Notes under the pieces: model-generated
What the model was told of the DNA's origin: nothing
Databases searched by the model: none
What the model saw: only the letters and a program-made list of their open reading frames with translations
Program-made: the position numbers and the translations under genes
Assembly: GCF_009687845.1 (NCBI RefSeq)
Contig: NZ_BLAD01000043.1
Location: 1-64,000, forward strand
Length of the DNA: 64,000 bases
Source: Acrocarpospora corrugata
GTDB lineage: Bacteria > Actinomycetota > Actinomycetes > Streptosporangiales > Streptosporangiaceae
Reading direction: 5' to 3'
Part shown: in pieces, positions 1 to 11,814 of the stretch
How positions within the stretch are numbered: position 1 is the stretch's first letter
Layout of the letters: each line of letters starts with the position of its first letter

Positions 1-951
1 GGCATCGGCGGGCACTCCCTCCAGGTGGTGCAGGTGGTGGGCAGGCTCAGAAAACTGGGGGTCACAGTAACCGCCCGGGAACTTCTGCAAACTCAGACGG
101 TGGCCGGCGTGGCCGCACGCTCGGCAGCGCCGACGGCCTCGCAGTCGTCTCTCGTGGTGGAGCTGAACCCGGGCAAACTCTCCGAGTCGGCGAAATCGGT
201 GTTCTGCCTACATCCCGGTGGCGGAAGCGCCCGCTGGTACATCCCACTCGCCGAGCAGATAGGCGCGGACGTCCGGATTTTCGGCGTGGAGGCAGTCGGC
301 CTGCATGGCGAGGAGCCGCCGTTGCACGAGATCGGGGAAATGGCCGATCGATACTGGCGAGAAATACGGGCGGTCCAGCCTGACGGGCCGTACTTTGTCG
401 TCGGATGGTCCTACGGGGCTATCGTCGCGCAAGAGATGGCGCGTCGGCACGGGGACCAGATGCAAGTCGTCATCCTGATCGAACCGCCGGTTCTTGAGGG
501 TCACATTCTGCATCGCATGCACCAGATCATGGATGGCTACCAATCATCCATCGATCTGTGGGAGCGAGGCCAGACGACCATCGGGGCGGAACGTCACGAG
601 ATAGAGGAGAAGCTGCGCAGCCTGGCTGACAGGCTGGAAGTGCCACGGGAAGCCGTCACTTTGGACGAGTGGCTTCCGTACCAGACCTTGTGGCTTCTGT
701 ACAAGGCAGCGGTGGAGCACCGTCCCCGCCCTTCGAAGGCGAAGACTCTTTTGCTGGTCGGTGACGAGGTCCGTGGCTCCTCCGATGGTTCCGATTACAA
801 TCTCGGCACCTATCAGGATTACCTCGAGTACTGGGGCGACCTGTGCGTCGGCGAGTTCCGGGTGGTCGACGCGCCTGGCCCGCACCTGGAAATGCTCGCG
901 TCCGGCCGTTCACTCGATGTCCTGATCCAGGAGATTCTCGACCTGCTGTGA
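1..951 (+). CDS. Nonribosomal peptide synthetase C-terminus: carrier domain and thioesterase (5' truncated)
   Basis: The reading frame is open from base 1, so the gene starts outside the window. The first codons read GIGGHSL, the phosphopantetheine attachment motif of a peptidyl carrier protein, with the Ser at 16-18. A type I thioesterase follows: it opens with FCLHPGGGS, has the nucleophile motif GWSYG (Ser codon 409-411) and a late catalytic His in the motif PGPHLEML. The domain releases the finished peptide by hydrolysis or cyclisation. The TGA at 949-951 is followed 90 bp later by a halogenase, so both probably belong to one biosynthetic cluster extending to the left. The product cannot be predicted from this fragment. 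Confidence 0.93.
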   Translation, partial: GIGGHSLQVVQVVGRLRKLGVTVTARELLQTQTVAGVAARSAAPTASQSSLVVELNPGKLSESAKSVFCLHPGGGSARWYIPLAEQIGADVRIFGVEAVGLHGEEPPLHEIGEMADRYWREIRAVQPDGPYFVVGWSYGAIVAQEMARRHGDQMQVVILIEPPVLEGHILHRMHQIMDGYQSSIDLWERGQTTIGAERHEIEEKLRSLADRLEVPREAVTLDEWLPYQTLWLLYKAAVEHRPRPSKAKTLLLVGDEVRGSSDGSDYNLGTYQDYLEYWGDLCVGEFRVVDAPGPHLEMLASGRSLDVLIQEILDLL

Positions 952-2583
<1,632 letters not shown>

Positions 2584-2792: not shown

Positions 2793-3602
2793 ATGGAGTC
2801 CGAGCAGGCGCCAACTGGTATCGACCCGAACATTCCGAGCGTCGCCCGGATGTACGACTACCTGCTCGGCGGCAAGGACAACTTCGCCTCCGACCGCGCC
2901 GCCGCCCAGAAGATCATCGAACTCACGCCCAACGTGCGCGAGAGCGTCCAGGCCAACCGACGCTTCCTCAGCCGCGCCGTCAACTACCTCACCGACACCG
3001 GCGTCCGCCAGTTCCTGGACATCGGCGCGGGCCTCCCCACCCAGGAGAACGTGCACCAGGTCGCCCTCCGCGCCGCCTCCGACTCGCGCGTCGTCTACGT
3101 CGACAACGACCCGATCGTCCTCACCCACGGGCGCGCCCTGCTGGCCGACAACCGCCAGACCATCGTCCTCGACGGCGACCTCCGCGAACCCCTCGCCATC
3201 CTCAAGGACCCCCGCGCCACCGCCCACCTGGACCTGACCCGGCCCGTCGGCGTCCTCATGCTGGCCGTCCTGCACTTCATCCCCGAAGACGACCTGGCCG
3301 AGACCGTCGTCCACGCCCTCCGCGACCACCTCCCCGCCGGCAGCGCCATCGTCATCAGCCACCTCTCCTTCGGCGACCTGGACGACAACAGCCTCGCCGA
3401 AGGCACCGCCGTCTACACCCACACCACCGCCGGCGGCGTCCGCCCCCGCTCCCACGCCCAAATCCTCCGCTTCTTCGACGGCTTCACCCTCGTCAACCCC
3501 GGCCTCGTCTCCACCGACGACTGGCGCCCCGACCCCCGCACCCCCCGCCTCCCGGCCCTCCCCGGCGTAGACGGCTTCGTCGGCGTCGGCCTCCTCGACT
3601 GA
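2793..3602 (+). CDS. SAM-dependent methyltransferase, PF04672 (DUF574) family, copy 1
   Basis: A 269-residue protein with the family signature SVARMYDYLLGGKDNF near the N-terminus, the SAM-binding motif FLDIGAGLPTQEN and an acidic strand VVYVDNDPIV that would hold the ribose. The family is abundant in actinomycetes and its substrates are largely unknown. The ATG is preceded by a G-rich ribosome site at about 2782-2789. It converges on the NACHT gene at 3652 and is clearly paralogous to the methyltransferase at 7027-7842, so the NACHT gene is bracketed by two copies. No other function is visible. Confidence 0.9.
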   Translation: MESEQAPTGIDPNIPSVARMYDYLLGGKDNFASDRAAAQKIIELTPNVRESVQANRRFLSRAVNYLTDTGVRQFLDIGAGLPTQENVHQVALRAASDSRVVYVDNDPIVLTHGRALLADNRQTIVLDGDLREPLAILKDPRATAHLDLTRPVGVLMLAVLHFIPEDDLAETVVHALRDHLPAGSAIVISHLSFGDLDDNSLAEGTAVYTHTTAGGVRPRSHAQILRFFDGFTLVNPGLVSTDDWRPDPRTPRLPALPGVDGFVGVGLLD

Positions 3603-3632
3603 GGCCGATCTCACCGTCGACAGGGTTTCGGT

Positions 3633-3651
3633 TCCGGCGAGCAGCGCCGGA
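3633..3651. terminator. Short hairpin between convergent genes
   Basis: TCCGGCG (3633-3639) pairs with 3645-3651 around a 5-nt loop. It lies in the 49-bp gap between the convergent methyltransferase and NACHT genes and may serve both. The stem is only 7 bp, so this is tentative. Confidence 0.35.
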
Positions 3652-6600
3652 TCAGCCTGGCCAGACGAGCCGGTAGCGACCGCCGTCGGCGCGGATGATT
3701 CGTCGGGCACGGTGGAACAGATGAGGGTGGTCGTCTTCCATGTCGGCCATCTCGTCGGGGGACAGTCGGCGGACGACGTCGAAGGCTGTCACCGGGACTT
3801 CCGAGGGGTCGATCTCCAACTCCATGAGGGTTACCGCTGCCTCCAGGTATGAGGCCGGTGGCAGGTCCAGTTCGTACAGGACCCGGCCGAGAAGTTCCAG
3901 CTGTCCGCGATCACGGGCTACCAGGTCCAAAGCACAGGTGATCATCGCGTGGTGGAACAGATCCAAGCCGTTGCTTGCGTTGATGGCATTGAGGGCCCGA
4001 TTGAGAAGCTGGGACACCTCCCAGGTAGTCAGGTTCGGCAGATGCGAGACGAGCCGATCCAGTGTCTCATCAAGGTATTCCCAAGGGAGTTCGTCGGGAA
4101 ATGTGGCGAGCATATCGAACACTCGCTCGAAGGCTCTGATGAGCTGGGGGTGAGGGGATTCATCGATAGGGAGCCACAGATTGTTGAGGGCAGCGAGCAG
4201 AGAGGTTGAGTTCTCCTGTTCCGTGCTGGCGATGAATGTCGCCGCTGCCCCGACGTAGCCAAAGCCTGAGCCGAGGGCTTCGGTGAGCATCGCATGGTCG
4301 GCCCTGATGTCCAGGGACGTTTGCGCGGGCAAGGCCCGCCATTTCCGCTGACGTTCTGTCGGGGGCTGGTTGTACGCCCACGCGAGGGAGTCCTCGGCTT
4401 CCCAGATGATGGTGGCTCGACTGCCAAGGATGATCGCTAGATCGGATGTCCTGGTGCCCGGGTGGGCTCGATGGGAGCCCTTCCAGAACAAAGTCAACAC
4501 TCGATCGTCGCCTCCCCAGGAGCGGGCGATTCCCAGCGTCGACACCAAACTGGACCATCCATCATGTTGTGTCCCGGCACGCCAGAGATCGACCAGGTGC
4601 TGCCACCGCCGGACTGCCTCTTCGCCCGCACCGAACAGCTCCGTGGCAGTCACCGGCCCGGCAAGGACTGTCGTCAGCAAGACGAGGTTGGCCGTCTGCC
4701 GGGCTATGCGCTCGACTGCAGACAAGGATTGCGGCTCATAGGCCGAGTTGATCGGCTCCGAGCCGAAGTAGATCTCCTGGAATCGGCGCAGGAGGAGGGG
4801 TTTGAGCTGGTGACCGGGTTCAGCGAGTTCATTGAGGAACTGCGGAATTGGCGCGCGGACCGATAGGACGGCGAAGGACAGGAGCGGAGCCAACGGGCCA
4901 GAATCCTGGCGGGTGGTGAGAATTCCACCCAGCAGGCCACCCCGGTCGAGTGCGTCACGCTCTGCCTCCCGTCTGAGGAGTTCGTGGACCAGGCGCGCGA
5001 TCAGGTATTCGCCGAATGTGGCGTGCAGGAATTCGTAGGTGCTTAGCTCTTCGGAGTCCTGCAGAGCGCGGGCTTGATGGATGAAGAAGAATCGGCCGAT
5101 CACGGTCTGTGCTGCGGTCAGCGGTCGCTGAAATCCGGTCCCGGCAGTGGGTGGGTCCGGGATCAGTGCGGTGAGATCACGGTCCAGGTCCTCACGGGTG
5201 ACCCACTGCTGTCCCCGGTTGAACATGGCGAACGCGGCGACGGAGAGTCGGAGTAGCTCTCGTTGGATCGCTGCTTCACGCTGTTGTGGCGAAAGCCCGC
5301 GCTCGTGTTTGTCGACCTCCCGCGCGGCGAAGCGGTGCAGCAGCCGCTCGTACAATTCGCCGAGCCGAAGCGTGCTGGCTCCATGCAGCGCGCCATCGGT
5401 CGCGGGGTTCGACGGGAAGGCAGAGTCGGCGTCATACAGGGCGAGCATGAGGAGAAGCAGCGGCTGTTCGGCCAGGTCCTGGTGAGCGAGCACATCTTTG
5501 CTTGACAGAGGTGTGCGGCCCTGGCTGAGGAAATGAGCGGTGTTGGCCTTGTTCCAGATGTCGATCCACAGTTTTACCTGGGCGTTTGAGAATGGTTCCA
5601 GCCGGATTGCGATCGTTCCGGCGGGCAGGCGGCAGCGGTCGGATACTGCGGTCCGGGTGGTCACGATCACGACTACTGGGCGGCCGAGTTCGGCTTCGCG
5701 GGTCTGGAATTCGGCGGCCTGGATCAGGTAGTCAGCTCGGTTGACGCCGGTGGCCTGGAGGAGTTCGTCGAGGCCGTCGAGCATGATGACCGGGAGCGCG
5801 CCTTCGGTCGATCGGGCGAGGTCAGGCCACGTCATGGACTCGCCGGTGGTGACCCGGATGGCGGCCTCGATCTGTTCCTGGATGCCGGCGTCCGCCGGAA
5901 CCTGACGCAGTGGGACGCGGACGGGGAGATAGTCGGCGGACGGGAGGCGGGCGGCGAGCATCTGGACGAGCACGGATTTGCCGACGCCCGGTTGCCCGAG
6001 TGCCAGCAAGGGCCATTTCGTCGCGGATATCGAGGTCACGAAGGCCGCCAGGAAGTGCTGCAGGTCGTCGCGGACGGGCTCGGCCGCCCATGATTCCTCC
6101 AGACTGAGATCGTTGCGGCGGTCCAGGAGCCGGAAACGCGGGTTTATGTATCCGTCGGCGAGGCTCGGCAGCGCTAGACCGTCAGGTAACTCGTCGCCAG
6201 GGCTGATCGTCCGGGCCAGGCAACCTTGGTTCAGGGCCAGAATGCTTCGCAGTTTGGCCGGTGGCACCCGCCCGGAGGCCACCGAGTCGAGCATGGCGGT
6301 CAGATCGGTCAGCCCGTGCTGGAGCTGGTGCTGAGTGGCGTGATGTTCGCCCTGATTCGTCCAGAAAGCGAATTCCGGGAACTCGACGGCCAGCTGACGG
6401 TAGAGCTCGTGGTAACGGCGGGCTGCGGCTTCGGGCAACACCTTGGTGATCTGGTCGCGGGCCTGATCCTTCTGCGTCGCGGTCAGTCCCTCCCAGACGG
6501 CCAGCCCCCGGACGAAGCGCAGAAGCGAGACGTTGGCCACGCGGTAGATCGATACCTTCGCGTGAAAAGGCGTGGGTGCCTGCGGAAGATCCGCGTCCGA

Positions 6601-7017
6601 GGAACTCGTGACGTCGCGGACTTCGAGCCGCGGGATGTCCGGGTTCAACTCCGGCAGGAGGGAGAGTTGCTCCGCGTAGGTGAGATCCAGGTCTTCGAGG
6701 CGGAAAGGGAGTTCGATGTCGTCGAGGGCCTCGAAGAACGCGGTCGCGGTGATGATCGCCTGGGCGGCGAGCAGGCGTTCTGTTCTGGTGTGGCGGGCGG
6801 TGCCGGTGACCTTCTCGCGGAGTGAGCCGATGAGGTGGTGGCCCAGTCGTACCGCCTCGGCTTTGGCGTCGAACAGGCTGAGAGCTAGCGCGCCCGCTCC
6901 TGGGAGGGCGGCGGCCCCGAGTAGCGCGCCGCCGAGGACCTTGTCGAGCGCTCGGAGCGTGCGGGTTTCGCCGCCGAGGATTCGTACCGCTTCCGCATAG
7001 CTGAACTGCTTGGCCAC
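3652..7017 (-). CDS. NACHT-domain STAND NTPase (NLR-like)
   Basis: An 1121-residue protein. The N-terminal part (about 1-120) is an alpha-helical region opening AKQFSYAEAVRILGG that resembles the NACHT-associated helical domain NNH7. The NACHT core has Walker A GQPGVGKS near residue 345 and Walker B VIMLDGLDEL near 410, the DGLDE form typical of NACHT rather than NB-ARC. The C-terminal 500 residues are helical, and I see no clear LRR, TPR or WD motifs. STAND NTPases act as ligand-triggered oligomerising switches, and several bacterial NACHT proteins defend against phage; the role here is inferred. The GTG start follows GAGGAG, and that Shine-Dalgarno overlaps the TGA of the upstream methyltransferase, so the two are translationally coupled. 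Confidence 0.88.
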   Translation of the reverse strand: MAKQFSYAEAVRILGGETRTLRALDKVLGGALLGAAALPGAGALALSLFDAKAEAVRLGHHLIGSLREKVTGTARHTRTERLLAAQAIITATAFFEALDDIELPFRLEDLDLTYAEQLSLLPELNPDIPRLEVRDVTSSSDADLPQAPTPFHAKVSIYRVANVSLLRFVRGLAVWEGLTATQKDQARDQITKVLPEAAARRYHELYRQLAVEFPEFAFWTNQGEHHATQHQLQHGLTDLTAMLDSVASGRVPPAKLRSILALNQGCLARTISPGDELPDGLALPSLADGYINPRFRLLDRRNDLSLEESWAAEPVRDDLQHFLAAFVTSISATKWPLLALGQPGVGKSVLVQMLAARLPSADYLPVRVPLRQVPADAGIQEQIEAAIRVTTGESMTWPDLARSTEGALPVIMLDGLDELLQATGVNRADYLIQAAEFQTREAELGRPVVVIVTTRTAVSDRCRLPAGTIAIRLEPFSNAQVKLWIDIWNKANTAHFLSQGRTPLSSKDVLAHQDLAEQPLLLLMLALYDADSAFPSNPATDGALHGASTLRLGELYERLLHRFAAREVDKHERGLSPQQREAAIQRELLRLSVAAFAMFNRGQQWVTREDLDRDLTALIPDPPTAGTGFQRPLTAAQTVIGRFFFIHQARALQDSEELSTYEFLHATFGEYLIARLVHELLRREAERDALDRGGLLGGILTTRQDSGPLAPLLSFAVLSVRAPIPQFLNELAEPGHQLKPLLLRRFQEIYFGSEPINSAYEPQSLSAVERIARQTANLVLLTTVLAGPVTATELFGAGEEAVRRWQHLVDLWRAGTQHDGWSSLVSTLGIARSWGGDDRVLTLFWKGSHRAHPGTRTSDLAIILGSRATIIWEAEDSLAWAYNQPPTERQRKWRALPAQTSLDIRADHAMLTEALGSGFGYVGAAATFIASTEQENSTSLLAALNNLWLPIDESPHPQLIRAFERVFDMLATFPDELPWEYLDETLDRLVSHLPNLTTWEVSQLLNRALNAINASNGLDLFHHAMITCALDLVARDRGQLELLGRVLYELDLPPASYLEAAVTLMELEIDPSEVPVTAFDVVRRLSPDEMADMEDDHPHLFHRARRIIRADGGRYRLVWPG

Positions 7018-7026
7018 CGGAGCTCC

Positions 7027-7842
7027 TCAGCGGTCGACTGTGCCCACACCGCCCAGAACATAAGGCTTACCGGTGTCCATTCGCGGGGGAACCGGATGAT
7101 CCGGTCGCCAGTCGTGTACGGGGACCAAGCCGGGCGGGAGCAGGGTCGTACCGGAGAAGAAGTCGGTGAGGCACTGGAGGGAGCGGTCGGCGACCGGGCC
7201 CGAGGAGGTGCGGGCGTAGATGGCACGGCCCGCGTCACGGTCGGCCTGTGACATCTCGCCGGCGTAGATGTGGCTGATCACGAGGTGGCTGCCGGGCGGG
7301 AGTGCGTCGCGGACGGCGGCCACCACGCTCAGGGCGTCGCGGTCGACGGTGATGAAGTGCAGGACGGAGAGCATCAGAACAGCCGTCGGGAGCTCTGGAT
7401 CGAGGTGAACGGCCAGTTCAGGGTGGTCGAAGATGGATTTGGGCTCGCGCAGGTCGCCCTCGATCGCGATCGTCTGCGAATTCTCGACGAGTAGGGCGCG
7501 GGCGTGGGCCAGGACGACCGGGTCGTTGTCGACGTACACCACGCGGGCGTCGGCGGCGATCCGCTGGGCCACCTCGTGGGTGTTCTCCTGTGTGGGCAGC
7601 CCGGCCCCGATATCGATGAACTGGCGAATCCCGACCTTCGTCAGATGCTCCACGGCCCGGCGCAGGAAGGCCCGATTCTCTCTCGCGAGTTCCCGCACCC
7701 CCGGAACCAGGCGAATGACCTCTTCGGCCGCCTCCCGATCCGCGCCGAAGTTGTCCTTGCCCCCGAGCCAGTAGTCGTACATCCGCGCGACACTGGGAAC
7801 AGCAGGATTGATCCCCGGTGATACCTCGTCCGATTCGCTCAT
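7027..7842 (-). CDS. SAM-dependent methyltransferase, PF04672 family, copy 2 (coupled to NACHT gene)
   Basis: A 271-residue paralog of the gene at 2793, with SVARMYDYWLGGKDNF, FIDIGAGLPTQEN and VVYVDNDPVV. The ATG has a strong GAGGAG site just upstream (reverse strand, about 7848-7853). Its stop lies 9 bp before the NACHT start and overlaps the NACHT ribosome-binding site. The pair therefore forms a two-gene operon in which the methyltransferase is made first. It could modify a small ligand or the NACHT protein itself, but nothing in the sequence names a substrate. Confidence 0.9.
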   Translation of the reverse strand: MSESDEVSPGINPAVPSVARMYDYWLGGKDNFGADREAAEEVIRLVPGVRELARENRAFLRRAVEHLTKVGIRQFIDIGAGLPTQENTHEVAQRIAADARVVYVDNDPVVLAHARALLVENSQTIAIEGDLREPKSIFDHPELAVHLDPELPTAVLMLSVLHFITVDRDALSVVAAVRDALPPGSHLVISHIYAGEMSQADRDAGRAIYARTSSGPVADRSLQCLTDFFSGTTLLPPGLVPVHDWRPDHPVPPRMDTGKPYVLGGVGTVDR

Positions 7843-7946: not shown

Positions 7947-8324
7947 TTAGTCGGTCAGGCGTCGGCGTAGCAGGCAGAACTCGTTGCCCTCTGGGTCGGC
8001 CAGGACGTGCCAGGATTCCTCGCCCGTCTGACCGACGTCGGCGGGCTTGGCGCCAATGGCCAGCAGGCGCTCAAGTTCGGCATCCTGGTCTCGATCGGTG
8101 GGACTCACGTCGATATGCAGCGGCAGTATGCCAGCCTTCGGCCTGTCGCTCGGACTGAAGACGATCGTCGGCTGGAGCCCGCCGAAGCCTTCGTCCTCAG
8201 GACCGATCTCGACGCTGCCCTCGACGCGACCGAGGACGACGTAGCCGAGCACGTCACACCAGAATGCGGCGAGGCGTTCGGGGTCTCGGCTGTCGATCAC
8301 CAATTCACTGATACGGCACGCCAT
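7947..8324 (-). CDS. VOC-family (glyoxalase/bleomycin-resistance-like) protein
   Basis: About 125 residues with two beta-alpha-beta-beta-beta modules: ISELVIDSRDPERLAAFW opens the first and PLHIDVSPTDRDQD the second. The family-typical ending LADPEGNEFCLL is present. VOC proteins are metal-dependent lyases, isomerases or binding proteins. I chose the ATG at 8324 because the protein family usually starts at this point, although no good ribosome site precedes it; an upstream ATG at 8357 is possible. The start lies inside the 3' end of the lipoprotein gene (28-bp overlap), which supports an operon with the lipoprotein and MerR genes. The substrate is unknown. Confidence 0.85.
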   Translation of the reverse strand: MACRISELVIDSRDPERLAAFWCDVLGYVVLGRVEGSVEIGPEDEGFGGLQPTIVFSPSDRPKAGILPLHIDVSPTDRDQDAELERLLAIGAKPADVGQTGEESWHVLADPEGNEFCLLRRRLTD

Positions 8325-8941
8325 GCGGTTGTTGGTACCCGGCTCAACTCCCGCCATGCGCGCGTGGAGCGGCATCCGACACTGCGAGCCCGGCGTAGGT
8401 CTCCGGTCACAGCATCAGCAAAATATCCGTCGTCGGTCCAACACGCGTCGATGAACGAAACAGTCACCCTGAATGACGACGGCGACGGGTGATCGTGCCG
8501 GTCGAAAGCGGCGGACAGGAGGCGTCCTGACGTGCCCCGTCTCAGCAGCATTCCGCTGCAGTCGGTGGCTGAGCACTCCTTGAATTCGGTTGGGTCTTCC
8601 GACCAGCCCGCAGTCGCCAGACTTCGTGCGATATCGCGTTCCTTGGATTCGGGTGCCAGGACCACGTAGACCCAGGCGCCGCTGTTCGCGGAATCGCAGC
8701 CATTCGCCGAAGCAACCTCTACGACGGCTCCCGTCGGAAAAGCCGCGTCCGGAACCTCGGCACGTATCGCGGAGTTCTCCTTCTCGGCGGTAGCCAGACA
8801 CCGCTCCATACGGGCCTGGCCGGACGACTCGGAGCATCCCGTGATCTGCGTCATCAGGATGGCGGCGAGCCCGGCGGCCAGAGGGCTGGGACTCAGCTTC
8901 TGCGTTCGCGGCCGTGGTCGTCGGCGGATCTGCTTCCACAT
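8297..8941 (-). CDS. Putative lipoprotein, 214 residues
   Basis: The start ATG (8941-8939) overlaps the TGA of the MerR gene. The N-terminus is Arg-rich, followed by a hydrophobic stretch and a lipobox-like ITGCSES, so the mature protein would be lipidated at that Cys and face the outside of the membrane. The mature part has further Cys residues (NGCDSANSG, KECSATDCSG) that could form disulphides. No family is recognised. The MerR and VOC genes overlap it on either side, so the three form one operon. I rejected competing frames over this stretch because only this frame gives a signal peptide. Confidence 0.72.
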   Translation of the reverse strand: MWKQIRRRPRPRTQKLSPSPLAAGLAAILMTQITGCSESSGQARMERCLATAEKENSAIRAEVPDAAFPTGAVVEVASANGCDSANSGAWVYVVLAPESKERDIARSLATAGWSEDPTEFKECSATDCSGMLLRRGTSGRLLSAAFDRHDHPSPSSFRVTVSFIDACWTDDGYFADAVTGDLRRARSVGCRSTRAWRELSRVPTTAWRAVSVNW

Positions 8942-9582
8942 CACGGGGTCTGGGGTGCCAGGATTCGGGCGGATTCTGATTCCTGGGCGAGGCGGCGGAT
9001 GGTGTCCAGGACCCGGCCGTACATGACTGTGCCGATGATGTGGGCTTCCACGGTTGTTTCGCGTGGGGCGTCGAATGGGATTTTGTGGATTTCGTGGGTT
9101 TGGACCAGGGTTTGGGCGGCGGTGGCGTAGGGGGTTAGGTCGGCGAGGGTGGGGTCGGTGCCGAGGGTGCGGAGGGTGACGATGGTTTGGGCTAGTTCTT
9201 CGCGGGCGGGGGCTTTGGGCTCGATCTTCCAGTCGTAGTCGGCGATTAGTTGGTCGACCATTTCGCGGGCCTCTTGCCAGTCCGGGGATTCTTCGTGGGG
9301 TTCGACGCCGGGGCTGAGGGCGTAGTGGGCGGTGCCGAGCATCTGGTGCACGCCGAGGTTCTCGTCGTCCACGGCGTCGATCACTTTGCGGATGGAGGCC
9401 ACGGGGAGGCGGCCGACTTCGAGCAGGGCGCGGATCAGGCGGAGGCGGCGGAGGTGGGCCTGGCCGTACTCGGCGCGGGTGGCGGAGGTCTGTTCGCCCT
9501 GGGGGAGGAGGCCTTCGCGCAGGTAGTACTTGATGGTCGGGATGGGCACCCCGGATTCGGCGCTGAGCTGGGAGATCCGCAT
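8941..9582 (-). CDS. MerR-family transcriptional regulator
   Basis: 213 residues. The N-terminal winged HTH reads MRISQLSAESGVPIPTIKYYLREGLLP, the standard MerR DNA-binding start, followed by a helical dimerisation region (about 60-110) and a C-terminal ligand region of about 100 residues without a Cys-rich metal site. It therefore probably senses an organic ligand rather than a metal. It is first in a MerR-lipoprotein-VOC operon and likely controls its own promoter through the dyad at 9602-9624. The ATG at 9582 starts directly at the conserved HTH. Confidence 0.92.
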   Translation of the reverse strand: MRISQLSAESGVPIPTIKYYLREGLLPQGEQTSATRAEYGQAHLRRLRLIRALLEVGRLPVASIRKVIDAVDDENLGVHQMLGTAHYALSPGVEPHEESPDWQEAREMVDQLIADYDWKIEPKAPAREELAQTIVTLRTLGTDPTLADLTPYATAAQTLVQTHEIHKIPFDAPRETTVEAHIIGTVMYGRVLDTIRRLAQESESARILAPQTP

Positions 9583-9782: not shown

Positions 9783-10868
9783 GTGCGGCAGGAGTTGGGT
9801 GGGAGGGCTGCCGTCGCGGGGGTGGGGATGACCGCGTTGAGCAGGGGGTCGGGGCGGTCGGAGTTGGAGCTTGCCGTTGAAGCGTGTCGGGGGGCGCTGG
9901 CGGATGCGGGGGTGGGTACGGCCGATGCCGTTCTGAGCTACCACATGAACGATTCCGTGGGTGCGGTTCAGGTGGCCAGGGCGTTGCGGATTGAGCCGGT
10001 GGGGTGGCATAACGACATCAGCGGTGGGGGGACGCAGTGTGCGTCGATCCTGGGGGACGCGGCGATGTTGATTGCGTCGGGTGTTGCCCGGACTGTGTTG
10101 ATTTATCGTGCGATGAACGGTCGGTCGGGGAAGCGGATGAACGTGGCTTCCATCGGGCCGCAGGAGGCTTTCACTGTTCCGTATGGGATGGCGGGGCCGA
10201 TTCCGCTTTTTGCGTTGGCCGCGCAGCGGTACCTCTATGACACGGGGCTGACGGAGGAGCATCTGCACGCGGTTGTGGCGCAGTCGCGGGACAACGCGGC
10301 CGGCAATCCGCGGGCGCTCCGGCGCGAACCGCTCAGTCTGGAGGACTATCTGGCCGCGCCGTTCGTGTCCACGCCGCTGCGTAACGTCGACTGCTGCCAG
10401 GAGACGGACGGCGCGTGCGCTCTCGTCGTGACCGGCGTGTCCAGGGCGCCCGACGCGCCCCGGATCCACACCGTGGTCAGGGGTGGTGGTTCCGGGTGTT
10501 CGACGATGGACGTCGCCGACGATGTCACGCGGATCTTCTCCGGGTATGTCGCCCCGCGATTGTGGGATGAATCCGGAATGTCCCCTGGGCAGGTGGACGT
10601 GCCGGTGCTGTATGACGCGTACTCATGGTTGGTGCCCCGGCAGCTCGCGGACTTTGGGCTGGCCGAGCCCGGGGACATTGGTGATTATCTGCTCAAACGG
10701 GCGCACGCGCGGGTGAACCCCCATGGTGGGCTGCTCTCCGAGGGGTACGTGCACGGCCTGAACAATGTCGCCCAGGCCGTCCGTGAGCTAAGGCGAGCAG
10801 GCGGAGTCGCGCTCGTCACCGGGTTCGGCGGTTCCTACGGCAGTGCCGCGCTCATTGAGCGTTCTTGA
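9783..10868 (+). CDS. Thiolase-like / lipid-transfer (SCP2-type) protein
   Basis: 361 residues. It opens with GRAAVAGVGMTALSRG and carries the internal motif DCCQETDGACALVVT and the C-terminal HGGLLSEGYVHGLNNVAQAV, all typical of nondecarboxylating thiolase-fold proteins related to Ltp2-type steroid side-chain aldolases and SCP2 thiolases. Such proteins usually need a DUF35 partner, and none is next to this copy. The GTG at 9783 is preceded by GGGAGGGG at the right distance, which decided the start. The KstR2-type site at 9634 suggests control with the steroid genes. It is a paralog of the gene at 61118. Confidence 0.8.
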   Translation: MRQELGGRAAVAGVGMTALSRGSGRSELELAVEACRGALADAGVGTADAVLSYHMNDSVGAVQVARALRIEPVGWHNDISGGGTQCASILGDAAMLIASGVARTVLIYRAMNGRSGKRMNVASIGPQEAFTVPYGMAGPIPLFALAAQRYLYDTGLTEEHLHAVVAQSRDNAAGNPRALRREPLSLEDYLAAPFVSTPLRNVDCCQETDGACALVVTGVSRAPDAPRIHTVVRGGGSGCSTMDVADDVTRIFSGYVAPRLWDESGMSPGQVDVPVLYDAYSWLVPRQLADFGLAEPGDIGDYLLKRAHARVNPHGGLLSEGYVHGLNNVAQAVRELRRAGGVALVTGFGGSYGSAALIERS

Positions 10869-11814
10869 TCCAGAAGGACGCGGCGACCAGTTCGGCGACC
10901 AAGGTCTCGGTGAGCAGGGCCACGTCGGGGTCGTCGTCGTGGCGGTAGCGGATCGAAGCCGCCTGCCCGTCGAGTTCGCCGCCGACCGTGAGTACGGCGG
11001 AGTTCCGCTGCCGGATCCACTCCATCGCCTGCTCGTCGTATCGGGAACCGGGGAAGACGAGCGCGCGGTAGTCGTATGTTTTCGTGAGGTATACGTCCAC
11101 GTGTGACCAGTCGCCGGTCTCGCAGGCGTCGGCCTGGCGGCGGGGGCCCTCCCGGAACATCAGCGCCGACTGCTGCGCCGACGACAACCGTCCGGCGGGC
11201 GCGATCGTGTACACGCCGTGCGGCCCGTCCAGCACCGAGATCGCCTGATCAAGCCACTCAGCGCGCCGATCGAGCAGATCCGCGCTCCCCTCAGCCGCCC
11301 GACGAACAAGTCCGGAAATATCCGCACCTGCTCCCGTGAGCCGATCGACCAGCCCCAGCAGCAGCACCAGTGTGTGCTGAAATGTCCGGCAAGCGACTCC
11401 GCCGGCCTCTTCCCCGGCCACCATGGGCACCACGAAATCCGCGCCCTCCGTGACCGCGGACCCCGGCTTGTTGGTCAGCGCCACCACCCGCGACCGGCCC
11501 CGATACCGCGCCACCGCGTCCAGCGTCTCCCGGCTACCCCCAGACGCCGAAATCGCCACCACCAACGTCGCCGGATCAGCCGGATACCCCACATCCGCCG
11601 ACGCGTACTCCGCCACCGCGTCGATCCCCGCCGCCCGCAACCGCAGCGCCGCGACCCCGGCCGCGTACCGGGAACTCCCCATCCCCAGAAAAACGACCCG
11701 CCGCGCATCCACCGGCACACCACTCAGCAGCCCACCGGCCTCCCACGCGTCGGCGAGCGCCGCCAACGCCTCCGGTTTCGCTTCCAAATCAGCCAGATAC
11801 CGCCCAGCGTCCAT
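10852..11814 (-). CDS. SIS-domain sugar isomerase/deaminase-like protein
   Basis: 320 residues with two SIS (sugar isomerase) halves. The phosphosugar-binding motifs are VVFLGMGSSRYAAG near residue 40 and VVAISASGGSRETLDA near residue 86, as in the isomerase half of glucosamine-6-phosphate synthase. It would act on a hexosamine phosphate in the cytoplasm. It lies downstream of the glucosamine-kinase-like gene (84-bp gap, same strand), so kinase product to SIS enzyme is the natural order. It converges on the thiolase-like gene with a 17-bp overlap at the 3' ends. Confidence 0.85.
   Translation of the reverse strand: MDAGRYLADLEAKPEALAALADAWEAGGLLSGVPVDARRVVFLGMGSSRYAAGVAALRLRAAGIDAVAEYASADVGYPADPATLVVAISASGGSRETLDAVARYRGRSRVVALTNKPGSAVTEGADFVVPMVAGEEAGGVACRTFQHTLVLLLGLVDRLTGAGADISGLVRRAAEGSADLLDRRAEWLDQAISVLDGPHGVYTIAPAGRLSSAQQSALMFREGPRRQADACETGDWSHVDVYLTKTYDYRALVFPGSRYDEQAMEWIRQRNSAVLTVGGELDGQAASIRYRHDDDPDVALLTETLVAELVAASFWIKNAQ

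What the first reader, a model, noticed from the sequence alone, without database searches (positions are those of the whole stretch)
2793..7842. NACHT NTPase coupled to a methyltransferase and bracketed by a second one
The PF04672 methyltransferase at 7027 has its stop inside the ribosome-binding site of the NACHT gene, so both are made together. A paralog ends 49 bp from the NACHT 3' end. A methylation-sensing or methylation-acting NLR module, possibly for phage defence, is a plausible but untested idea.
Basis: partly seen in the sequence, partly recalled or inferred. Interest (0 to 1): 0.65.

Follow-up and report, generated by a model that had tools for sequence, protein, structure and literature searches.

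The report
Immune-like NACHT gene beside older methyltransferase
A bacterial gene related to animal immune receptors sits next to a methyltransferase gene, but in related bacteria each gene is found without the other, so they look like neighbours and not the two halves of one defence machine.

Summary
Window 3652-7017(-) encodes a NACHT-type STAND ATPase with an N-terminal NNH7 domain. A PF04672 methyltransferase (7027-7842, -) ends inside its ribosome-binding site; a second PF04672 gene (2793-3602, +) ends 49 bp from its 3' end. The genome, an Acrocarpospora, has 21 PF04672 matches over the cut-off. The proposed methylation-NLR module is weakly supported. The tight junction occurs in 3 of 81 related loci, all Acrocarpospora. 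A looser neighbourhood exists in four genera, but the NACHT joined an older MerR-methyltransferase block that 8 of 49 MerR loci carry without NACHT. The genes part in both directions: A. phusangensis and A. catenulata keep the NACHT without the upstream methyltransferase; one Herbidospora keeps the methyltransferase and only a stub of the NACHT. Most likely the NACHT is a self-sufficient, fast-diverging NLR-related immune-type receptor beside resident genes. One oddity remains: NACHT sits mostly at methyltransferase-bearing MerR loci (9 of 17 versus 1 of 32) and probably arrived there more than once. No function was tested. New member of a known kind; modest interest.

The parts
3652..7017 (-). 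NNH7-NACHT STAND ATPase, 1121 aa, GTG start; NNH7 about residues 3-224, NACHT and following helical part about 250-850, fast-diverging segment about 861-1050, conserved C-terminal tail 1051-1121
7027..7842 (-). PF04672 S-adenosyl methyltransferase upstream of the NACHT; stop overlaps the NACHT ribosome-binding site
7018..7029 (-). junction: TGA stop of the methyltransferase, GAGGAG ribosome-binding site, then the GTG start at 7017
2793..3602 (+). second PF04672 methyltransferase, convergent with the NACHT
7947..8375 (-). glyoxalase-like (PF18029) gene between MerR and methyltransferase; does not align in A. macrocephala and A. phusangensis
8941..9582 (-). MerR-family regulator, the most constant neighbour of this NACHT at this locus
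10852..11814 (-). SIS-domain gene, part of the shared chromosomal neighbourhood

Best explanation
The NACHT gene is a self-sufficient NLR-related immune-type receptor that came to lie next to an older resident block (MerR regulator, PF04672 methyltransferase, often ThuA) and in some Acrocarpospora is probably read in the same transcript as the methyltransferase. Shown: domain layout, NLR-like ATPase fold of the model, rapid divergence, presence of each gene without the other. Inferred: the fast-diverging C-terminal segment (about 861-1050) senses an invader product or a disturbed host component; the NACHT ATPase then oligomerises; the N-terminal helical NNH7 domain, with a Gly/Ala-rich hydrophobic stretch at residues 31-49, acts as the killing or signalling effector, perhaps at the membrane, causing abortive infection. 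The methyltransferase most likely methylates a small metabolite and is not needed by the receptor.
For: NNH7 over its cut-off; model matches NLRP3 and NLRC4. In 5 Acrocarpospora genomes NACHT is present in 5, the upstream methyltransferase in 3. MerR-methyltransferase pair without NACHT in 8 of 49 MerR loci, 5 genera; none of these 8 genomes is among the 60 of 150 with an NNH7 match. The Planobispora NACHT lies between MerR and ThuA, whose aligned parts are 23-34 bp apart in three congeners; MerR and methyltransferase trees nest Planobispora among NACHT-less relatives. NACHT-less Herbidospora G109 keeps a full-length methyltransferase, MerR and ThuA and the NACHT start-codon stub. The NACHT diverges faster than its neighbours: amino-acid identity 65-67% versus 85-91% for both methyltransferases and MerR against A. 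macrocephala, phusangensis and pleiomorpha; dS 0.85-1.00 versus 0.21-0.61; residues 861-1050 are 41-47% identical. PDB 3giw of PF04672 holds an unknown phenylalanine-like ligand, hinting at a small-molecule substrate (passage of PMC2954221).
Against: Among 49 MerR loci, NACHT is enriched at those with a methyltransferase within 6 kb (9 of 17 versus 1 of 32, Fisher p 9.7e-5; by genus 4 of 7 versus 0 of 11, p 0.011), though relatedness is ignored there. A. phusangensis still has the downstream methyltransferase, which could substitute (and which counts it among the 9). Herbidospora G148 has lost both genes. The dN/dS of the NACHT (0.25-0.31) is no higher than that of the downstream methyltransferase (0.27-0.34), so the divergence is old or imported variation and not evidence of positive selection. 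No PADLOC model matches, no clear defence neighbours, and no solved fold matched NNH7. Defence function is inferred from family resemblance only.
Confidence: 0.68

Rival explanations
1. The methyltransferase and NACHT form one functional module: the methyltransferase modifies or makes a ligand for the NACHT, or the NACHT guards the methyltransferase and fires when a phage disturbs it.
For: Tight junction kept in 3 species; NACHT enriched at methyltransferase-bearing MerR loci; arrivals at this locus probably occurred more than once; a PF04672 gene of the same 23-row clade lies within 6 kb in 11 of the 12 NACHT loci that lie near MerR, window included.
Against: Each gene occurs without the other; A. 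catenulata has NACHT with no methyltransferase within 6 kb; order and strand relation of the two genes vary among genera; among the 68 other NACHT relatives none shows a methyltransferase within 3 kb (several of these loci hold little flank).
Confidence: 0.14
2. The NACHT protein is a regulatory STAND ATPase acting with the MerR regulator on this metabolic neighbourhood, not an immune receptor.
For: Of the 13-row NACHT clade that holds the window protein, 11 lie within 4 kb of this MerR; the exceptions are L105 and L106. STAND ATPases of actinomycetes include regulators (recalled, from no call).
Against: MerR occurs without NACHT in 39 of 49 loci; no DNA-binding family was found in the NACHT protein at E <= 0.01; it diverges far more than MerR.
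Confidence: 0.1
3. The locus is only a neutral insertion site, and co-location carries no functional meaning, whatever the NACHT does. (Not exclusive of the best explanation.)
For: Other genes (named by eye: a LysR-type regulator, a dehydrogenase-like gene and others) fill the same interval in NACHT-less Herbidospora; methyltransferase presence at MerR varies with and without NACHT.
Against: The same NACHT clade, rather than assorted genes, recurs there in four genera.
Confidence: 0.25

Closest known systems
Bacterial NACHT (bNACHT) NLR-related anti-phage proteins, e.g. bNACHT25 (PMC12169576, passages seen)
   Same: Tripartite layout: N-terminal effector-position domain, NACHT ATPase, C-terminal sensor-position region; NLR-like ATPase fold in the model.
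   Different: NNH7 in place of the nuclease effector of bNACHT25; no demonstrated phage protection; NACHT domain below the PF05729 cut-off.
PF22738 NNH7 (NACHT N-terminal helical domain 7) family
   Same: Residues 3-224 match at 226 bits; found in 60 of 150 genomes of the bacterial family.
   Different: Only the gene neighbours differ from most members seen.
PF04672 S-adenosyl methyltransferases (PDB 2qe6, 3giw, 3go4)
   Same: Full-length match; 2qe6 is listed with SAM and 3go4 with SAH (passage of PMC2954221).
   Different: Substrate unknown here as there; placed beside a MerR regulator and a NACHT gene.
Animal NLRs (NLRP3, NLRC4)
   Same: ATPase and following helical parts superpose (Z 16.1 at best, 348-383 residues).
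   Different: No leucine-rich-repeat, CARD or PYD family found at E <= 0.01.

Membership tests
NNH7-NACHT proteins | N-terminal PF22738 over curated cut-off | tested here: met
   226.1 vs 27 bits
NNH7-NACHT proteins | NACHT/STAND P-loop ATPase downstream | tested here: met
   core residues G341, P343, G344, G346, K347, S348 and D414, D417, E418 invariant among 45 rows; structural match to NLRP3/NLRC4; PF05729 itself sub-threshold
bNACHT anti-phage systems | demonstrated protection against phage | not testable with these tools
   needs plaque assays
bNACHT anti-phage systems | match to a catalogued defence model | tested here: not met
   no PADLOC 2.0.0 family at E <= 0.01 for the three proteins; the catalogue is of 2023
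NLR in the strict sense | C-terminal leucine-rich repeats | tested here: not met
   no LRR family at E <= 0.01; residues 940-1115 of the model are helical
PF04672 methyltransferase | full-length family match | tested here: met
   296.8 and 294.8 vs 26 bits; homologues 2qe6 and 3giw for the upstream copy
Methyltransferase-NACHT two-gene module | direct pairing conserved beyond the genus | tested here: not met
   tight junction in 3 of 81 loci, all Acrocarpospora
Methyltransferase-NACHT two-gene module | the two genes are gained and lost together | tested here: not met
   8 of 49 MerR loci have methyltransferase without NACHT, 1 of 49 the reverse; A. phusangensis lacks the upstream copy; but Herbidospora G148 lacks both
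Methyltransferase-NACHT two-gene module | co-occurrence at one locus above expectation | tested here: inconclusive
   9 of 17 vs 1 of 32, p 9.7e-5, not corrected for relatedness; by genus 4 of 7 vs 0 of 11, p 0.011

The most novel reading that the evidence does not exclude
The MerR-PF04672-ThuA block is a recurrent docking site at which NNH7-NACHT receptors were installed independently at least twice (the Herbidospora-Acrocarpospora ancestor and Planobispora), because the receptor guards this block: it watches the methyltransferase or its methylated metabolite and fires when a phage disturbs it. Swapping of NACHT alleles in place, with neighbours left alone, would be the trace of that arms race.
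Probability: 0.1. Interest if true: 0.65.

Novelty: new member of a known kind. Interest (0 to 1): 0.33.

Why it matters
It shows how an apparently translationally coupled enzyme-receptor pair can be a local accident of gene order: natural losses in both directions are a cheap control that should precede naming a two-gene defence system. It also marks the NNH7-NACHT proteins, common in this family of actinomycetes (60 of 150 genomes), as an untested immune-type family whose N-terminal domain matched no solved fold, and one locus where such a receptor diverges much faster than its neighbours.

Tried and rejected
A wide NACHT-PF04672 partnership: rejected. One search looked at 80 loci plus the window. 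Twelve NACHT loci lie near MerR (window, L097-L104, L107, L115, L131); L106 is a second, unlinked copy in NEAU-GS5 with a PF04672 gene of another branch 4.4 kb away; among the other 68, PF04672 was seen only at 3.7 kb (L109, opposite strand) and about 7 kb (L166). In the 150-genome survey L092 has one 1.9 kb upstream, of a different PF04672 branch.

A recent tandem duplication bracketing the NACHT: rejected; the two copies are 56.4% identical and form separate, old clades.

A defence island: 70 neighbouring proteins from 10 loci were scanned against PADLOC. These were 70 of the 145 listed; the rest, among them all of L104 and L131, were dropped by eye, mostly as near-duplicates. 52 models matched; the 25 shown (PD-T4-6 many times, PglW, mad6, MkoA and one labelled kinase, five members each) I read as ordinary Ser/Thr kinases, which is inference; the other 27 and the members' names were not shown.

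A deletion scar of the methyltransferase in A. phusangensis: an 8-nt and a 12-nt match between MerR and NACHT look like its 3' end, but 60 of 5000 shuffles and 64 of 3043 other segments reach the 8-nt match (16 of 2000 shuffles against the A. macrocephala copy), and part of the 12-nt match is the ribosome-binding site; suggestive only. The 40-nt match at the other end of the lost NACHT in G109 lies in the overlapping hydrolase gene, so I do not count it.

NNH7 fold: the AlphaFold model of residues 1-250 at pLDDT 74.8 gave no match at E <= 0.001 and no Z of 5 or more; this does not show a new fold. The viral library gave one match at E <= 0.001, an NLR-named phage protein, not followed up. The promoter scan found none; it covers only one promoter type.

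Papers: the listings of seven searches showed no title on a PF04672-NACHT pair; most were longer than the rows shown (for example 10 of 381, 20 of 52), and the library holds open-licence papers only. Passages were seen of PMC2954221, PMC2955703, PMC7159879, PMC12169576 and PMC13236601; no paper was read whole.
Full report
What is there. Both 270-residue proteins are PF04672 methyltransferases, and the 1121-residue protein begins with NNH7 (PF22738, 226 bits against a cut-off of 27) followed by a divergent NACHT ATPase (PF05729 20.2 bits against 26.7). The core residues of its Walker A and B motifs are invariant among 45 aligned relatives. An AlphaFold2 model (pLDDT 80) superposes on NLRP3 and NLRC4 over 348 and 383 residues (Z 16.1). 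PADLOC and NCBIfam gave no match for the NACHT protein at E <= 0.01.

Where it is. The window is contig C43 of a 9.27 Mb genome. NCBI lists one further named species, A. corrugata, so the window is probably that one; this is inference. The genome has 21 PF04672 matches over the cut-off, one a fragment, plus one weaker match, and one NNH7 gene.

How widely the pair is kept. In 150 genomes of the family, 60 have an NNH7 match. I fetched 66 stretches covering all listed matches but one weak one in G026 (two stretches, L095 and L096, showed no NACHT by tblastn) and searched them together with the window: PF04672 was found in 10 of 67 records. A scan of 84,980 species returned the best 80 of 297 related loci. 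Of these 80 plus the window, twelve lie near the MerR gene described below: Acrocarpospora (window and 4 others), Herbidospora (5), NEAU-GS5 (L103) and Planobispora (L107). The methyltransferase-NACHT junction of 8-9 nt exists in the window, A. macrocephala and A. pleiomorpha only (3 of 81). The 68 other relatives (L106 set apart), from Microbispora to Streptomyces and Actinoplanes, show no PF04672 within 3 kb, though several of those loci hold short flanks.

What the old neighbourhood is. The constant neighbour is a MerR regulator, window 8941-9582. Of 150 genomes, 103 have a MerR match at E <= 1e-30. I took the 49 with the closest MerR (58% identity or more) and read their surroundings within 6 kb, some cut by contig ends: methyltransferase and NACHT 9, methyltransferase only 8, NACHT only 1, neither 31. 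The 8 had been noticed first because of an adjacent methyltransferase; all 49 were then scored by the same rule. In A. phusangensis, one of the 9, the methyltransferase is the downstream, convergent one. In Planobispora the NACHT lies between MerR and ThuA, while in three congeners the aligned parts of MerR and ThuA are 23-34 bp apart with no NACHT. In Herbidospora and NEAU-GS5 it lies beyond ThuA; in Acrocarpospora it follows MerR or the methyltransferase.

Trees. Both window methyltransferases fall in a 23-row clade (support 95/91) with the MerR-linked methyltransferases and one further copy of this genome; they are not shown to be sisters. On the MerR tree (49 rows) NACHT needs 5 changes; Herbidospora plus Acrocarpospora form one clade (97/96), and Planobispora G133 is nested among NACHT-less relatives, sister to G044 (100/93). 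On the NACHT tree (81 rows) the window protein lies in a 13-row clade; in it the Planobispora protein pairs with one from Microbispora amethystogenes (support 95) that has no MerR match in the 16 kb held. More than one arrival at this locus is therefore likely but not proved; MerR alone is a short marker, and one search was a quick search without bootstrap.

Natural losses. A. phusangensis and A. catenulata have NACHT frames of 1119 and 1140 codons but no close relative of the upstream methyltransferase among the candidates scored in their draft genomes (best 55% identity, against 86% in the two species that have it). Herbidospora G109 has a full-length methyltransferase, MerR and ThuA and other genes where the NACHT stands in its congeners; the first 19 bases of the NACHT frame remain unchanged beside ThuA. 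Herbidospora G148 has lost the NACHT, with a similar stub seen by eye but not by BLAST, and its methyltransferase too, apart from a remnant; that case could be read as joint loss. H. cretacea has a NACHT split into two frames beside a full-length methyltransferase.

Rates. Against A. macrocephala, phusangensis and pleiomorpha the NACHT is 65-67% identical, the methyltransferases 85-88% (the upstream one compared in two species only), MerR 90-91% and SIS 83-88%. dS is 0.85-1.00 for the NACHT, 0.53-0.61 for the upstream methyltransferase, 0.21-0.33 downstream, 0.22-0.47 for MerR and 0.44-0.60 for SIS. Against A. catenulata the same order holds (NACHT 56%, dS 1.20; MerR 79%, 0.51; SIS 82%, 0.76). 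The method is simple counting, near saturation. dN/dS is 0.25-0.31 for the NACHT and 0.27-0.34 for the downstream methyltransferase, so no positive selection is shown. DNA identity to A. macrocephala falls from 89 to 73% at the 3' edge of the NACHT. Within the protein the ATPase (321-680) is 77-80% identical and residues 861-1050 41-47%. This fits import or swapping of NACHT alleles and a variable sensor, and is inference.

Mechanism. Shown here: architecture, fold class of the model, divergence, occurrence of each gene without the other. Inferred from bNACHT proteins (tripartite scheme and phage protection by others of the class, passages of PMC12169576): sensor, ATPase switch, N-terminal effector. 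The hydrophobic stretch at 31-49 is the most hydrophobic 19-residue segment of the protein and lies in the low-confidence part of both models; a membrane role is a guess. 24 of 51 relatives have a segment of hydropathy 1.6 or more in residues 1-110, so the feature is not universal.

What speaks for a link after all. NACHT is over-represented at methyltransferase-bearing MerR loci (9 of 17 versus 1 of 32; p 9.7e-5; by genus 4 of 7 versus 0 of 11, p 0.011). These tests ignore relatedness, and with two or three independent arrivals the enrichment could be chance. A guard relation stays possible, at about one in ten.

Noticed in passing
genomes G007, G023, G040, G042, G043, G045, G054, G086, G111, G132 (e.g. 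L042, L047, L069): Tandem pairs of NNH7 genes about 3.3-3.5 kb apart on the same strand in 10 of 150 genomes; the window genome has a single copy. Paired receptors might be worth a look.
   Followed up: no
L115 10001-11185 and 11095-13158: The Herbidospora cretacea NACHT is split into two overlapping frames (frameshift or assembly error) beside a full-length methyltransferase.
   Followed up: no
window 1-2583: End of what looks by eye like a carrier-protein/thioesterase NRPS gene (25-951) followed by a tryptophan halogenase (PF04820, 1042-2583): the edge of a biosynthetic cluster abuts the NACHT locus.
   Followed up: partly
L183 6365-6393 and L185 about 9969-9991: In two NACHT-less Herbidospora the start codon and first codons of the lost NACHT remain beside ThuA, followed by other genes including, by eye, a LysR-type regulator.
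   Followed up: yes
window 7947-8375: A glyoxalase-like gene sits between MerR and the methyltransferase here; this stretch does not align in A. macrocephala and A. phusangensis.
   Followed up: partly
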